From positions 995,501 through 1,059,500 of the forward strand of contig NZ_CP109787.1 of assembly GCF_025857195.1 (NCBI RefSeq): 64,000 nt of DNA, written 5' to 3'. Positions 54,656-61,509 of the stretch are shown piece by piece. The stretch comes from Leisingera thetidis (lineage in GTDB: Bacteria; Pseudomonadota; Alphaproteobacteria; Rhodobacterales; Rhodobacteraceae). Under the pieces are notes generated by a model. That model saw only the letters and a program-made list of their open reading frames with translations. It searched no databases and was not told where the DNA came from. Each line of letters begins with the position of its first letter. Positions within the stretch are counted from its first letter, which is position 1. Both the position numbers and the translations under genes were made by a program.

Positions 54656-56050
54656 TCAGGCCGCTTGGATGCATTCCGGAGACAGGGTCACCTGGTTGCG
54701 GCCGGCGTTTTTCGCATTGTAGAGCGCCTGGTCAGCCTTTTCGACAAGTAGGGCAGTACTGTCATCCTTGCCGCCGCCGCCCATCACCGCGCCGATGCTG
54801 ATGGTGATCCTGACCGGTTCGGCGGCGCCGGGCACCTGGAACGGGGTGCAGTTGATTGCGTTGCACAGGGCGATCGCGGCAATGCCGGCTTCGGCCTCGC
54901 TGGCGCCGGGAAGCACCGCCATGAATTCCTCGCCGCCGACGCGGGCCAGCAGGTCGGCCGGGCGCAGCACGGCCTGCATCCTGCGGGCGGCCTCGATCAG
55001 CACAGCGTCGCCAGCCGGGTGGCCGTACAGGTCGTTGATCTGTTTGAAGTGATCGAGATCGGCCAGCATGACGGCGAATTTCCCGCCATTGGCGGCCGCG
55101 GAATGTGCCACCCGGTCCAGGAACGGCTTGGCATAACGCCGGTTGTAGAGTCCGGTCATCGGATCCAGCACCGCGGCGCGCAGCCCGTTGCGGACGCTGT
55201 CGCGCAGCCGGTCCTTGCGGACCTTGTGCTGCAGCTGGGCGGAGAGCCGCAGTTCCAGTTCCTCGACATCAAAGCCGGTCTGCAGCACGTCATGGGCCCC
55301 GCGGTCGAGCGCCTCGGCGGCGATATGCGGGTCCGCCGGATTGGGCACGGCAATCACCACCGACTGGCGGGTGGCGGCGCGGGCACGCAAGTCGGCCAGC
55401 AGGCGCAGGCCAGGGCCGGCCGAGGCCTCGTTCAGTTCGATGACGATGGCGTCTGCCACCGGTGCCTGCATCAGCCCCTGGATATCGCTGATCGCATAGG
55501 TGCGCAGATCAAAGGGCAGCCGGCCGGAAAGCCGGTCACGCCAGGCCATGGCGGTGCGCGGATCCTGCGCCACCAGGGCAACGGAGGCGTCGCGCAGATC
55601 CTCGGCGCAAGCGCGGTCGCTCAGCGGCAGGATGAAACCATGCGAGGCGTCGCGCTGCAGGTTCAGTTCTTCAGTGCTGCTGCGGGCGCGCAGCAGGCTG
55701 CGGATGCGGGCCTGCAGGATCACGTCATCCACCGGCTGCTGCAGGACGTCGTCGACGCCGGCGGCCAGAGCCTGCAAACGGGCTTTGGAACCCTCCCAGT
55801 CGGAGACCGCGATCACCGGCAGGTCGGCCAGCGCCTCATCTCCGGCCAGCTCGCGCTTCACATCGGCGGCGGTGCCATCGGGCAGCGACATGGCGCAGAG
55901 CACAAGGTCGGGACGGTGCTGGCGCGCGGCCTGCAGCGCTTCAGCCACGCTGCCGGCCTGCACCGCATCGTAATAGGCAGCCGCCAGCTGCACCTTCAGC
56001 ATGATGCGGTTGGTGGAGACGCCGTCGATGACCAGGATAGTGCCTTGCAC
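54656..56050 (-). CDS. pleD: PleD-like response regulator/diguanylate cyclase with degenerate first receiver
   Basis: From GTG 56050 (AAAGGA eight bases upstream) the protein has 464 residues: REC1, REC2 and a GGDEF domain with GGEEF and an intact RxxD (RPAD) inhibition site five residues before it, the PleD arrangement. REC1 is degenerate. Numbered as in Caulobacter PleD, the acidic pair is D9-G10, the phosphoacceptor D53 is Ala53 and K105 is Gln105. REC2 is the usual non-acceptor adaptor. The cyclase should be active, but activation by REC1 phosphorylation is lost. An upstream TTG 56074 is an alternative start. Confidence 0.88.
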   Translation of the reverse strand: MQGTILVIDGVSTNRIMLKVQLAAAYYDAVQAGSVAEALQAARQHRPDLVLCAMSLPDGTAADVKRELAGDEALADLPVIAVSDWEGSKARLQALAAGVDDVLQQPVDDVILQARIRSLLRARSSTEELNLQRDASHGFILPLSDRACAEDLRDASVALVAQDPRTAMAWRDRLSGRLPFDLRTYAISDIQGLMQAPVADAIVIELNEASAGPGLRLLADLRARAATRQSVVIAVPNPADPHIAAEALDRGAHDVLQTGFDVEELELRLSAQLQHKVRKDRLRDSVRNGLRAAVLDPMTGLYNRRYAKPFLDRVAHSAAANGGKFAVMLADLDHFKQINDLYGHPAGDAVLIEAARRMQAVLRPADLLARVGGEEFMAVLPGASEAEAGIAAIALCNAINCTPFQVPGAAEPVRITISIGAVMGGGGKDDSTALLVEKADQALYNAKNAGRNQVTLSPECIQAA

Positions 56051-56165
56051 GCGGTATCCTTTCGCCCCTTGCAATTCCTATGCCTTGCAGCTTTGCTGAG
56101 ACTGGTTAAGAAACTCTTTCGGATTTTTACTAAATTGGCCGCAATGCGGCAGGAGTGTGGGGAAC

Positions 56166-56508: not shown

Positions 56509-57198
56509 ATGCCCGTTGATGCATTCCTGTTCGACAAGGACGGAACCCTGTTCAACTTTGCTGCTACCTGGAATGGCTGGGCTGCAGATTTGCTTGAAAC
56601 CCTGTCCAGGGGCGACCGGACCGTCAAGCAGGCGATGGCTGAGGCGATCAGTTATGACCTGGAGCGCCAGGCGTTCAACCCGGACAGTCTGGTCATTGCC
56701 AGTTCCAACGATGAAGTGGCCGAAGCGCTTGCCCCCTATGTCGCGGATATGAGCCTCGGAGAACTGACGGCATACCTGGCTGAAAGTGCGGCGGATGCCG
56801 AACTGGCGCCGGCAGTGCCGCTGGCGGAATTCCTCGACGGGCTGCTGGCGCGCGGCAAGGTGCTCGGGGTCATGACCAATGACGCCGAGAGTTCGGCCAG
56901 GATCCAGCTGCAGCGGGCGGGAGTGCTGGACCGGTTCGCCTTTGTCGCGGGCTGCGACAGCGGCCATGGCTCCAAGCCGGACCCTGACCCGCTGCTGGCG
57001 TTCTGCAAGGCCGCCGGCGTGGCTCCGGAGCACACCGCAATGGTGGGAGACAGCCTGCATGACCTGGAGGCCGGTGCGGCTGCGGGAATGCGGCGGATCG
57101 GCGTCCTGACCGGCATGGCGCTGCGCGAGGAGCTGGCGCCGCATGCCGATATCGTGCTGCCTGACATCGGCCACATCGCGGCCTGGATCGACCGCTGA
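56509..57198 (+). CDS. HAD family hydrolase (phosphoglycolate phosphatase-like)
   Basis: The 229-residue protein has HAD motif I FDKDGTLF at the start, motif II MTND, and motifs III/IV around GSKPDPDPLLAF and VGDSLHDLEAGAAAG. It is a Gph-like phosphatase or a related nucleotidase. It has a small cap domain between motifs I and II. It follows the DUF3572 gene and is 236 bp from the MttB start. Confidence 0.88.
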   Translation: MPVDAFLFDKDGTLFNFAATWNGWAADLLETLSRGDRTVKQAMAEAISYDLERQAFNPDSLVIASSNDEVAEALAPYVADMSLGELTAYLAESAADAELAPAVPLAEFLDGLLARGKVLGVMTNDAESSARIQLQRAGVLDRFAFVAGCDSGHGSKPDPDPLLAFCKAAGVAPEHTAMVGDSLHDLEAGAAAGMRRIGVLTGMALREELAPHADIVLPDIGHIAAWIDR

Positions 57199-57434: not shown

Positions 57435-58994
57435 ATGGCAGACACAGGGGCGCGCAAGAGGCGGGGCGGGGGCAGGGCAGGCGCAGCGGCGCGGCGCGGC
57501 AGTGCGGCGCTGGAGCAGATGCCCTGGCAGATCCCGGTCAACATCGACCGCCCGACCGAGCCGTTGAGCGAGGAAGGCATCCAGGCGATCCATGAGGGCG
57601 CCATGCGGATCCTGGAAGAGATCGGCGTGGTGTTCCTGAATCCGGAGGCGCTGGAGATCTTCAAGCAGGCCGGTGTCAAGGTCGAGGGCGAACTGGTCAG
57701 GATGGACCGGGACTTTGTGATGGAGATGGTGGGCAAGGCGCCCCGCGAATTCTCCATTACCCCGCGCAATCCCGACCGGACCATTCCGCTGGGCGGCAAT
57801 CACATCCTGTTCGGCAATGTCTCCTCGCCGCCGAATTACTGGGACATGGAGCTGAACAGGAAAGTGGCGGGCAACCGCGAGCAGTGCCGCAACCTGCTGA
57901 AGCTGACCCAGTATTTCAACTGCATCCACTTTGCCGGCGGCTATCCGGTGGAGCCGGTGGACATCCATGCCTCGATCCGCCACCTGGATGTGCTTTATGA
58001 CAAGCTGACCCTGACCGACAAGGCGATGCACGCCTACTCGCTTGGCAAGGAGCGGGTCGAGGACGTGATGGAGATGGTGCGGATTGCCGGCGGGCTCAGC
58101 CATGAGGAATTCGATGCCAAGCCGCATATGTACACCAACATCAACTCCACCTCGCCGCTGAAGCACGATTTCCCGATGATTGACGGCTGTCTGCGGCTGG
58201 CGCGGCGGGGGCAGGCCATCGTCGTCTCGCCGTTTACCCTGGCAGGGGCCATGGCGCCGGTGACAATGGCCGGTGCGGTGGCACAGTCGATTGCCGAGAG
58301 CCTGTGTGCCATAGCGCTGTTCCAGTACGTGCGTCCCGGCACGCCCTGCGTGATCGGCACCTTCACTTCCAACGTGGACATGAAATCGGGCGCGCCGGCC
58401 TTTGGCACGCCGGAATACATGCGCTCGACCCAGATGACCGGGCAGATGGCGCGGTTCTACGGCCTGCCGATGCGCTCGTCCGGGGTCTGTGCCGCCAATG
58501 TGCCGGACGGTCAGGCGGTCTGGGAGACCTCGAACTCGCTGTGGGCGGCGGTGCAATCGGGCACCAACATGGTTTACCACGCGGCCGGCTGGCTGGAGGG
58601 CGGGCTGATCGCCAGCCCCGAGAAGTTCATCATGGACTGCGAGATCCTGCAGCAGATCGAACGTTACATGCAGCCGCAGATCTCGGCCACCGGCCCCGAT
58701 GAGATCGCCCTGGATGCAATCAGGGAGGTCGGCAACGACGGCCATTTCTTTGGCATACAGCACACCCAGGACCGCTATGCGACGGCTTTCTACCAGCCGT
58801 TCCTGAGCGACTGGCGCAACTATGAGGCCTGGGAGGCAGCGGGCGCCACTTGGACCGCGGAGCGTGCGCACAAATTGTACAAGGAGATCATTGCCGACTT
58901 CGAGGAACCGCCGATGGACGCCGCGGTCCGCGAAGAACTGGCGGACTTCGTTGCCCGCCGCAAGACTGAAGGCGGTGCCCCAACAGATTTCTGA
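57435..58994 (+). CDS. Trimethylamine methyltransferase family protein (MttB, non-pyrrolysine)
   Basis: The 519-residue protein is a COG5598 MttB-family corrinoid methyltransferase without pyrrolysine: the frame has no in-frame TAG. The N-terminal 30 residues are basic and low-complexity (RGGGRAGAAARRG). The barrel carries EGIQAIHEGAMRILEEIGV, YFNCIHFAGGYPV and NSLWAAVQSGTNMVYHAAGW. The family includes glycine betaine methyltransferases and dozens of uncharacterised paralogues in roseobacters. With the carnitine cassette in this window, a betaine-type substrate is possible but unproven. GGGGAGACC precedes the ATG. Confidence 0.88.
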   Translation: MADTGARKRRGGGRAGAAARRGSAALEQMPWQIPVNIDRPTEPLSEEGIQAIHEGAMRILEEIGVVFLNPEALEIFKQAGVKVEGELVRMDRDFVMEMVGKAPREFSITPRNPDRTIPLGGNHILFGNVSSPPNYWDMELNRKVAGNREQCRNLLKLTQYFNCIHFAGGYPVEPVDIHASIRHLDVLYDKLTLTDKAMHAYSLGKERVEDVMEMVRIAGGLSHEEFDAKPHMYTNINSTSPLKHDFPMIDGCLRLARRGQAIVVSPFTLAGAMAPVTMAGAVAQSIAESLCAIALFQYVRPGTPCVIGTFTSNVDMKSGAPAFGTPEYMRSTQMTGQMARFYGLPMRSSGVCAANVPDGQAVWETSNSLWAAVQSGTNMVYHAAGWLEGGLIASPEKFIMDCEILQQIERYMQPQISATGPDEIALDAIREVGNDGHFFGIQHTQDRYATAFYQPFLSDWRNYEAWEAAGATWTAERAHKLYKEIIADFEEPPMDAAVREELADFVARRKTEGGAPTDF

Positions 58995-59400
58995 AGCGGC
59001 GGAAGCCCGGGAAAAGCGGAGGGGGCCCCTCCGCTTTTTTGTGCGCAGGGCGCGGCATAAGGACAGAAACCGCCGGTCGGATGCCAAAGAACGTGCCGCG
59101 GGCTTGCCTATGATCGCCTGCCGGTCCAGTAGGGGCAGTGCCAGGGGGGCCGCAGCGGGCGCGCAGGCACGTGTTGGAAAGGTATGAGTTTCACCGGATG
59201 AGATCGGCCGAAGTGCCAGCTGCCAGCCAGTAATTGCGTTGCGCGCCGGGCCGGTTTCTGCTGCTGAAGGTGCAGGTTTCGTGCAAGAGTTGATTGAATC
59301 GGGTAAAATGTGCGCGTTTGACCACGCAAATTTGCTTTGTTGGGCCTTTCTTAACCTGCGGGCGCCAAGACTGGGGCATAGGCAAAGAGGGGCCATTGCA
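58995..59400. other. 406-bp non-coding gap between the MttB gene and the H-NOX-like gene
   Basis: This holds the terminator at 59012-59040 and then AT-poorer sequence with no credible gene. The last 130 bp become AT-rich before the H-NOX-like start (GAGTTGATTGAATCGGGTAA), so a promoter for the H-NOX-like/GGDEF pair is expected there, but I could not fix -35/-10 boxes. Confidence 0.6.
59012..59040 (+). terminator. Intrinsic terminator of the MttB-family gene
   Basis: AAAAGCGGAGG and CCTCCGCTTTT pair around GGGCC, with TT continuing after the stem, 18 bp past the stop codon. Confidence 0.9.
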
Positions 59401-59987
59401 TGCACGGTCTGATCAACAGGGCGATTCAGGCTTTTGTGACCAGTACCTACGGGGCGGACCGCTGGGAAGAGGTTATGGAAGAGGCCGGGCTTGGATTTAC
59501 CGAGTTCGAAGCGATGCTGTTTTACACCGACGAGCAGTCCGGCCAGATGCTGGCAGCGATGGGAAAGGTTCTCGCGCGCCCACTGCCGGAAATGCTGGAG
59601 GACATGGGCACATTTCTGGTATCCAATCCCCAGGTGGAGGCCTTGCGCCGGCTGTTGCGCTTCGGCGGCGTCAACTATGTGGAATTCCTGCATTCTCTGG
59701 ATGATCTGCCGGACCGGGCGCGGTTGGCGGTGTCGGATTTGAATCTTCCCGGGCTGGAGCTGCTGGAGCAGGCGCAGGACCAGTTTGAACTGATCTGCCA
59801 GCCGGGGCTGCCTGGCTATGCGCATGTTCTTATGGGGGTCCTGCGGGCGATGGCGGATGATTACGGCGACCTGGTCTTTCTGGACCACAGCGGCATGCAG
59901 GACGGGGCCGAAGTGATTTCGATCACCCTGGTGGAAACCAAATTTGCTGCAGGGCGCGAATTCGACTTGGGGGCGCATTCCTTATGA
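59401..59987 (+). CDS. H-NOX (heme NO-binding)-like protein lacking the heme ligand
   Basis: The 195-residue protein has the overall H-NOX fold pattern from the N-terminal M-H-G-L-I-N-R start through RWEEVMEEAG. The conserved block that carries the proximal His (NLDNLH in family members) reads SLDDLP here, with Pro at position 104; the nearest His is H98. The Y-x-S-x-R propionate motif is replaced by C133-Q-P-G-L. So haem binding by the usual mode is unlikely. It overlaps the HNOBA-GGDEF gene by four bases and presumably acts through it. An N-terminal alternative fold cannot be excluded. Confidence 0.85.
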
Positions 59988-61039
59988 TGACACTCCAGCA
60001 GCTGACCGGAATGGCGGGTGTGATCTGCCCGATGTACACCATCATAGATGCCAAGGGACGGATCGTCTCTGCCGGGCCGACCCTGAAAAAGCTGCGTCCG
60101 CAGCTGAGTTGGGAGGGGCGGCGGTTCTTCCGGGTATTCGATCTGTCCCGCCCGCGTTCGGTGCGCTCGGTGGAGGATCTGCTGAGCACCTCCGGCAGCA
60201 AGCTGCACCTGCAGTTCCGGGATGAGCCGCAGACCGGCCTCAAGGGAGTCTGCACGCCGCTGCCGGACGGCCAGGGGGCGTTTGTCAATCTCTCCTTCGG
60301 GATTTCGGTCCTGGAAGCCGTGCGCGACTATGATCTCACCAGCGCGGATTTCTCACCGACTGATCTGACCATTGAAATGCTGTATCTGGTCGAAGCGAAA
60401 TCCGCCGCGATGGAGGCCTCGCGCCAGCTGAACACCCGGCTGCAGGGCGCCAAGATCGCGGCTGAGGAGCAGGCCTTTACCGACACGCTGACCGGGCTCA
60501 AGAACCGCCGGGCGATGGACCATGTGCTGGGGCGGCTGATCAACAGCGGCCGCGAATTTGCTCTGATGCATCTGGACTTGGATTTCTTCAAGCAGGTGAA
60601 TGACACTCTGGGCCATGCGGCCGGCGATGCGGTGCTGCAGCAGGCGGCGCGGATCATGGTGGAATGCACCCGCCAGTCGGACACAGTCGCCCGGGTCGGC
60701 GGCGATGAATTTGTGATGATTCTCGAGGGGGTTCTGGACACGGCCAGGCTGGCGGCCATAGCCAAGCGGCTGATTCAGCGGCTGGAAGAGCCGATTCCCT
60801 TTGGCGGTCAGGCCTGCCGGATTTCCGCCAGTGTCGGCACCACACTGTCGACCTGGCAAAAGCTTCCTGATGCGGTGCAGCTGCTGAACCAGGCGGATCT
60901 GGCGCTTTATGCTGCCAAACGGGCCGGGCGGGCGCAGCATTTTTTCTACCGCGAAGGCATGGAGAAGGAAGAGGCGTGCGGCAGTGCCAGTGCCACGGCT
61001 TCCCCGCTTCCGGCCGCGGCTCCCGGCCCGGCCTCCTGA
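59984..61039 (+). CDS. HNOBA domain diguanylate cyclase
   Basis: The 351-residue protein has an N-terminal heme-NO-binding-associated (HNOBA) domain (residues 1 to about 145, with YTIIDAKGRIVSAGP and LKGVCTPLPDG), a coiled coil (about 140-165) and a C-terminal GGDEF at 239-243 with RxxD (R230-D233) inhibition site. It makes cyclic-di-GMP. HNOBA domains pair with H-NOX sensors; here the partner is encoded immediately upstream with ATGA coupling. The C-terminal 25 residues are Ala/Pro-rich. Confidence 0.93.
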   Translation: MMTLQQLTGMAGVICPMYTIIDAKGRIVSAGPTLKKLRPQLSWEGRRFFRVFDLSRPRSVRSVEDLLSTSGSKLHLQFRDEPQTGLKGVCTPLPDGQGAFVNLSFGISVLEAVRDYDLTSADFSPTDLTIEMLYLVEAKSAAMEASRQLNTRLQGAKIAAEEQAFTDTLTGLKNRRAMDHVLGRLINSGREFALMHLDLDFFKQVNDTLGHAAGDAVLQQAARIMVECTRQSDTVARVGGDEFVMILEGVLDTARLAAIAKRLIQRLEEPIPFGGQACRISASVGTTLSTWQKLPDAVQLLNQADLALYAAKRAGRAQHFFYREGMEKEEACGSASATASPLPAAAPGPAS

Positions 61040-61189: not shown

Positions 61190-61264
61190 TGGCAGCCCGT
61201 AGGGGAATCGAACCCCTCTTTCCAGGTTGAAAACCTGGCGTCCTAACCGATAGACGAACGGGCC
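61190..61264 (-). tRNA. tRNA-Glu (anticodon TTC), copy 1
   Basis: On the minus strand the acceptor stem GGCCCGT pairs with ACGGGCT (G-T wobble at the first pair), the anticodon loop is TTTTCAA, the T arm is GAGGGG-TTCGATT-CCCCTA and CCA is encoded. It is identical to the copy at 61435-61509. A TTGCGC-N17-TAAACA promoter lies just upstream at 61283-61311. Confidence 0.97.
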
Positions 61265-61434: not shown

Positions 61435-61509
61435 TGGCAGCCCGTAGGGGAATCGAACCCCTCTTTCCAGGTTGAAAACCTGGCGTCCTAACCGATAGAC
61501 GAACGGGCC
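61435..61509 (-). tRNA. tRNA-Glu (anticodon TTC), copy 2
   Basis: It is identical in sequence to copy 1, with the same acceptor stem, TTTTCAA anticodon loop and encoded CCA. The 170 bp between the copies holds no gene. Its own promoter lies at 61528-61556. Confidence 0.97.

What the first reader, a model, noticed from the sequence alone, without database searches (positions are those of the whole stretch)
59401..61039. H-NOX-like sensor that has lost its heme ligand, coupled to an HNOBA-GGDEF cyclase
Seen: by alignment to family blocks, the proximal-His position is Pro104 and the Y-x-S-x-R propionate motif is C133-Q-P-G-L, while the HNOBA partner and the GGDEF active and inhibition sites are intact and joined by ATGA overlap. 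Known: H-NOX proteins sense NO through a His-ligated haem and act on associated cyclases. Inference: this pair may sense something other than NO with haem, or use a different ligand or a protein signal, to control c-di-GMP.
Basis: partly seen in the sequence, partly recalled or inferred. Interest (0 to 1): 0.7.

Follow-up and report, generated by a model that had tools for sequence, protein, structure and literature searches.

The report
Haem-ligand-less H-NOX beside a diguanylate cyclase
A bacterial protein with the fold of a nitric-oxide sensor has lost the residue that holds its haem, yet it is well preserved beside a signal-making enzyme; it belongs to a group already described in print, whose real signal is still unknown.

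Summary
Window 59400-59987 (+) encodes a 195-aa H-NOX whose proximal haem His is Pro104 and whose YxSxR motif is CxPxL. It overlaps by ATGA an intact HNOBA-GGDEF diguanylate cyclase. The genome is a Leisingera.

It is no local oddity. Of 132 subfamily loci examined, one per genome, 93 have Pro there, 13 His, 25 another residue, 1 a gap; none has YxSxR. None of the 120 nearest proteins has His. The gene is under purifying selection. It is already in print: a 2022 review names "Group 5" H-NOX (<10% His, mostly Pro), and Kumar & Spiro (2017) note the missing His in Paracoccus denitrificans.

Added here: the NO-responsive Dinoroseobacter shibae H-NOX falls in the same subfamily as a His-bearing exception; His is scattered, and is replaced by Asn or Arg in two of its seven nearest relatives; the subfamily has its own RRxxR helix.

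Best reading: a haem-independent pseudo-sensor that controls (probably inhibits) the cyclase as a protein partner. New member of a known kind; its signal is unknown.

The parts
59400..59987 (+). H-NOX (HNOB) protein, 195 aa, without proximal His
59709..59711 (+). codon 104, CCG = Pro, at the proximal haem-His position
   Evidence: sequence; alignments
59796..59810 (+). C133-Q-P-G-L in place of Y-x-S-x-R
   Evidence: sequence; alignment
59646..59669 (+). R83-R84-L-L-R87-F-G-G, signature of this subfamily
59984..61039 (+). HNOBA-GGDEF diguanylate cyclase, 351 aa; overlaps the H-NOX gene by ATGA
57435..58994 (+). MTTB-family (trimethylamine methyltransferase-like) gene upstream, a recurring neighbour
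56509..57198 (+). HAD-family hydrolase, further upstream

Best explanation
The H-NOX protein is a Group 5 H-NOX, a pseudo-sensor. The H-NOX fold, the proximal Pro and the glycines are kept, but the haem-iron ligand and the propionate clamp are lost. It most likely works without haem as a protein partner of the HNOBA-GGDEF cyclase encoded by the overlapping gene, binding it and holding it down. Regulation would come from something other than NO-haem: protein level, a ligand at a subfamily-specific site, or redox of Cys133. Shown here: the sequence, the gene pairing, the conservation and the predicted fold. Inferred: absence of haem in vivo, binding to the cyclase and the direction of control. 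The input is unknown.
For: Proximal His lost: 0 of 120 nearest proteins and 13 of 132 subfamily loci have His. YxSxR-like: 0 of 132 versus 34 of 38 other H-NOX loci. Purifying selection. Predicted fold is H-NOX, pLDDT 90, TM 0.81 to Nostoc H-NOX. A GGDEF gene follows in 110 of 128 loci with the RRxxR motif, versus 8 of 42 without. Cyclase active site and I-site intact. In P. denitrificans, whose H-NOX is stated to lack the His, the hnoX mutant makes less biofilm and no visible BapA while the mutant without both dgc genes overproduces biofilm; the authors suggest that H-NOX inhibits DgcA (PMC5588039, passages). So a His-less member has a biological role.
Against: I found no spectrum or haem assay of a His-less member in the papers I saw. 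Haem can sit in an H-NOX pocket without the His: the title of PDB entry 2kil is the S. oneidensis H103G mutant in the Fe(II)CO state. The D. shibae relative is reported to respond to NO and inhibit Dgc1 (Bedrunka 2018, not held; seen as cited). Kumar & Spiro and the 2022 review still suppose NO input in P. denitrificans, although Kumar & Spiro also find NO effects that do not need H-NOX. The window's organism carries a copper nitrite reductase match (533 bits) and so may make NO.
Confidence: 0.6

Rival explanations
1. It still binds haem through another ligand, or without one, and senses NO or another gas, as its His-bearing relative in D. shibae is reported to do.
For: D. shibae H-NOX lies in the same subfamily and also lacks YxSxR, yet is reported to be an NO sensor (as cited). 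Cys133 is 120 of 120 conserved in the nearest proteins, and the Pro that contacts haem in canonical H-NOX is kept (P117, 137 of 137 non-gapped rows without His, near-copies included).
Against: Cys133 is only 71 of 130 family-wide and is Val in 33 of 130. Position 104 takes twelve different residues among the non-gapped rows. The D. shibae protein has His.
Confidence: 0.22
2. It is a new ligand sensor: subfamily-typical polar residues (H2, R83, R84, R87, R149, D153) bind a metabolite or anion in or near the old pocket.
For: These positions are invariant over the 115 members of alignment A1 (chosen from 241 proteins by length and under 80% identity). Family-wide R83, R84, R87 and D153 are 98-100%, R149 93% and H2 87% of 130. 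The RRxxR motif marks the subfamily.
Against: The same residues could simply be the cyclase-binding surface. I had no coordinates to place them, and no ligand is known. Another invariant, R106, is not specific: Alr2278 has Arg there too.
Confidence: 0.13
3. A decaying, functionless sensor gene.
For: Loss of both haem motifs.
Against: dN/dS 0.03-0.07 against 12 close loci; 21 of 21 genomes of the genus have an HNOB match; gene pair kept across the family; deletion phenotype in P. denitrificans.
Confidence: 0.02

Closest known systems
Group 5 H-NOX (review in Biosci Rep 2022, PMC8738867; includes P. denitrificans H-NOX, Pden_3719)
   Same: Proximal His mostly replaced by Pro; glycines kept. GGDEF, MTTB and HAD are among the neighbour families in the review's figure legend (which does not assign them to groups in the text I saw) and all three lie beside the window's gene.
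   Different: The review says there is no conserved Cys. Here Cys133 is invariant in the 120 nearest proteins, though only 71 of 130 family-wide.
Dinoroseobacter shibae H-NOX / Dgc1
   Same: Same subfamily and same gene order with a GGDEF cyclase; no YxSxR.
   Different: Has His at the proximal position; reported as NO-responsive (as cited).
Canonical NO-sensing H-NOX (for example Nostoc Alr2278, Shewanella, Vibrio)
   Same: Fold and conserved Pro.
   Different: His and YxSxR are absent here.
Haem-free redox H-NOX of Vibrio cholerae (PMC7108781)
   Same: Precedent for haem-independent H-NOX control (passages).
   Different: That one uses a Cys-ligated zinc site; this protein has a single Cys.
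Alpha subunit H-NOX domain of animal soluble guanylate cyclase (recalled)
   Same: An H-NOX fold without haem, kept as a structural and regulatory partner.
   Different: Fused to its cyclase and paired with a haem-bearing beta subunit.

Membership tests
HNOB / H-NOX fold family (PF07700) | Profile score over the curated cut-off | tested here: met
   79.3 versus 25.5 bits
HNOB / H-NOX fold family (PF07700) | H-NOX fold | tested here: met
NO/O2-sensing (haem) H-NOX | Proximal His ligand | tested here: not met
   Pro104
NO/O2-sensing (haem) H-NOX | YxSxR propionate motif | tested here: not met
   CxPxL
NO/O2-sensing (haem) H-NOX | Haem bound in the protein | not testable with these tools
   needs purified protein
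Group 5 H-NOX (PMC8738867) | Proximal His mostly replaced by Pro | tested here: met
   Pro104 in the window; 93 Pro, 13 His, 25 other, 1 gap of 132 subfamily loci
Group 5 H-NOX (PMC8738867) | Glycine hinges kept | tested here: met
   G70 99%, G146 100% of 130; matching them to the published hinge is my inference
Group 5 H-NOX (PMC8738867) | No conserved Cys | tested here: inconclusive
   Cys133 120 of 120 nearest, 71 of 130 family-wide
Group 5 H-NOX (PMC8738867) | Clusters with P. denitrificans H-NOX in a similarity network | not tested
   the P. denitrificans sequence was not fetched by name
Zinc/redox H-NOX (V. cholerae type) | Three-Cys zinc site | tested here: not met
   only one Cys in the protein
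GGDEF diguanylate cyclase (partner) | GGDEF and RxxD I-site | tested here: met
GGDEF diguanylate cyclase (partner) | HNOBA domain in front | tested here: met
   23.7 bits, cut-off 23.4, residues 14-81 only: a marginal match

The most novel reading that the evidence does not exclude
A whole bacterial family (Rhodobacteraceae in the GTDB sense) rebuilt the H-NOX fold into a haem-free regulator of c-di-GMP with its own input or interface around H2, R83, R84 and R87. The NO-responsive member described, D. shibae, carries a sporadic His at a site no longer under haem constraint, so NO control cannot be carried over by homology to the rest.
Probability: 0.35. Interest if true: 0.65.

Novelty: new member of a known kind. 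Interest (0 to 1): 0.38.

Why it matters
Genes of this kind are named as haem NO-binding proteins in public records, and papers carry NO control over by homology (for R. capsulatus in PMC7232146, passage; for P. denitrificans in PMC8738867). If most of these proteins cannot hold haem in the usual way, the NO-to-c-di-GMP link in roseobacters needs re-testing, and the real signal is an open question that these gene pairs make directly testable.

Tried and rejected
Shift of the ligand to H98: rejected (same predicted helix, six residues away; present together with H104 in 10 of 13 His-bearing subfamily loci).

Link of His with nitrite reductase: by strong NirK (over cut-off) or cytochrome-d1-type matches, 7 of 13 His-bearing and 8 of 24 His-less genomes. 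No clear link; the 24 were chosen by hand, mostly as tree neighbours, and the d1 profile also matches NirF/NirN-type proteins (recalled).

Single loss of His: the quick tree needs 11 changes of the His state over 130 subfamily rows, 12 of them His. Here the subfamily was split off by the haem-site motif, also 132 loci but not quite the same set as; five were left out as cut or broken (L107, which has His, L111, L178, L180, L229), and L001, L022 and L034 were added. 77 of 136 inner branches are unsupported and the counts do not depend on the root, so gain and loss cannot be told apart.

Zinc or redox site: only one Cys. No NCBIfam model matched. The promoter scan found no promoter-like site and one terminator-like site against 2.0 expected.

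Limits of the sample: 170 matches were aligned out of those in 296 matching genomes: the 30 best-scoring, 80 from the score-sorted list (seven high-scoring listed ones skipped) and 60 from 60 genomes below the listing. So 132 to 38 is not a rate of the two kinds. L181 (124 bits, Pro) falls in the 'other' set by the score rule but is probably a subfamily member. In the class-wide search only 8 candidates per genome were scored.

Full report
What is there. Window 59400-59987 (+) encodes a 195-residue HNOB (H-NOX) protein; 59984-61039 (+) encodes a 351-residue HNOBA-GGDEF protein; the two overlap in ATGA. Upstream lie an MTTB-family gene (57435-58994) and a HAD hydrolase (56509-57198). The named nearest relatives point to the genus Leisingera; 21 of 21 genomes of the genus have one HNOB match each, and the window's own genome has no second one.

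The haem site. Alignment with Nostoc Alr2278 is gap-free over the region and puts Pro104 at His105 and C-Q-P-G-L at Y-Q-S-T-R. In the 120 nearest proteins (of 5775 hits) position 104 is Pro 117, Ser 2, Ala 1, His 0; Cys133 and Pro117 are 120 of 120. dN/dS against 12 close loci (L002-L012 and L036) is 0.03-0.07; over the 36 comparisons made, up to 77-91% protein divergence classes included, it reaches 0.17, and four had saturated dS. This is a maintained protein.

How general. In 394 Rhodobacteraceae genomes (about one per genus) 296 have an HNOB match. I aligned 170 matches from these genomes: the 30 best-scoring, 80 from the score-sorted list and 60 from genomes below the listing; this is not a random draw. 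Sorted by the subfamily motif RRxxR or profile score, rather than by the haem site, 132 belong to this subfamily, one per genome: Pro 93, His 13, others 25 (Asn 5, Gln 4, Ala 3, Arg 3, Thr 2, Ser 2, Glu 2, Gly 2, Asp 1, Tyr 1), gap 1; YxSxR-like 0. Of the other 38, 36 have His (1 Gln, 1 Pro) and 34 have YxSxR-like; 11 genomes of the sample hold both kinds. A GGDEF gene follows in 110 of 128 RRxxR loci and 8 of 42 without the motif (some loci are cut short). MTTB lies upstream in 49 of 128 testable subfamily loci and 0 of 36 canonical ones (on a split by the haem motif that differs slightly). Across 385 genomes drawn from the class, 10 match the subfamily profile: four strongly (over 290 bits), all in this family; the other six, one of them in this family, score 112 bits or less, and all six have His and a YxSxR-like motif (eight candidates per genome were scored).

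The Dinoroseobacter exception. Genome G055 has contigs of 3,789,584, 190,506 and 152,970 bases, which I recall as D. shibae DFL12; no tool named it. Its H-NOX has His (DDLHDRAR) but C-I-W-H-R in place of YxSxR, and a GGDEF gene follows. It groups inside the subfamily. Of the seven nearest proteins to it (69-99% identity, the first probably the same species), five have His, one Asn and one Arg. Over the 120 listed of its 3889 hits: Pro 57, His 25, Arg 13, Ser 10, Ala 6, Lys 5, Gln 2, Asn 1, Glu 1; none of the His-bearing ones shows YxSxR. On the quick tree the His state needs 11 changes among 130 rows, with poor support inside. So His is not a conserved feature even near D. shibae.

Prior art. 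Kumar & Spiro 2017 (PMC5588039, passages) state that the R. sphaeroides and P. denitrificans H-NOX lack the axial His, citing Iyer 2003 and Plate & Marletta 2013 (neither read). They report a biofilm and BapA defect of the hnoX mutant and suggest that H-NOX inhibits DgcA. A 2022 review (PMC8738867, section 10 read) names a large Group 5 with under 10% His, mostly Pro, no conserved Cys, and asks how these sense anything; MTTB, HAD and GGDEF are among the neighbour families in its figure legend, which covers Groups 1-5 together. My His count (13 of 131 non-gapped rows, 9.9%) agrees. Earlier work calls the His absolutely conserved in 598 sequences in four groups (PMC7108781, passage). The P. denitrificans hnox biofilm defect is repeated in PMC12582929 (introduction and passages). 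D. shibae NO control is Bedrunka 2018, not held and seen only as cited.

Mechanism. The deletion phenotype of a His-less relative, the conserved gene pair and the intact cyclase point to a protein-level regulator that works without NO-haem, most likely an inhibitor. This is inference: the phenotype does not itself exclude haem or NO. Its input is unknown. Candidates are the H2/R83/R84/R87/R149/D153 set, which may equally be the cyclase interface, and Cys133.

Verdict. Real, well conserved and biologically meaningful, but a member of a published group; interest lies in the unanswered signal and in the D. shibae comparison.

Noticed in passing
57435-58994: MTTB-family methyltransferase directly upstream of the H-NOX; also upstream in 49 of 128 testable relatives and 0 of 36 canonical H-NOX loci. 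A functional link is unexplained.
   Followed up: partly
L097 (genome G106): A canonical-type H-NOX with YxSxR kept but Gln at the proximal His: a separate loss outside this subfamily.
   Followed up: no
L107, L180, L041, L229: H-NOX genes that are split over frames or carry a stop in single genomes.
   Followed up: no
54656-56074 (-): A second, response regulator-GGDEF (PleD-like) protein close by; the genome has four GGDEF matches in all.
   Followed up: no
61190-61264 and 61435-61509 (-): Two tRNA-Glu (TTC) genes just downstream of the cyclase.
   Followed up: no
window genome G000:C1:4265311-4266285 (outside the window): The same genome has a strong copper nitrite reductase match (533 bits), so it may make NO itself.
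   Followed up: partly
window H-NOX residues 185-191: A conserved C-terminal GRxFxLG tail beyond the H-NOX domain with low predicted confidence; it may order on the cyclase.
   Followed up: no
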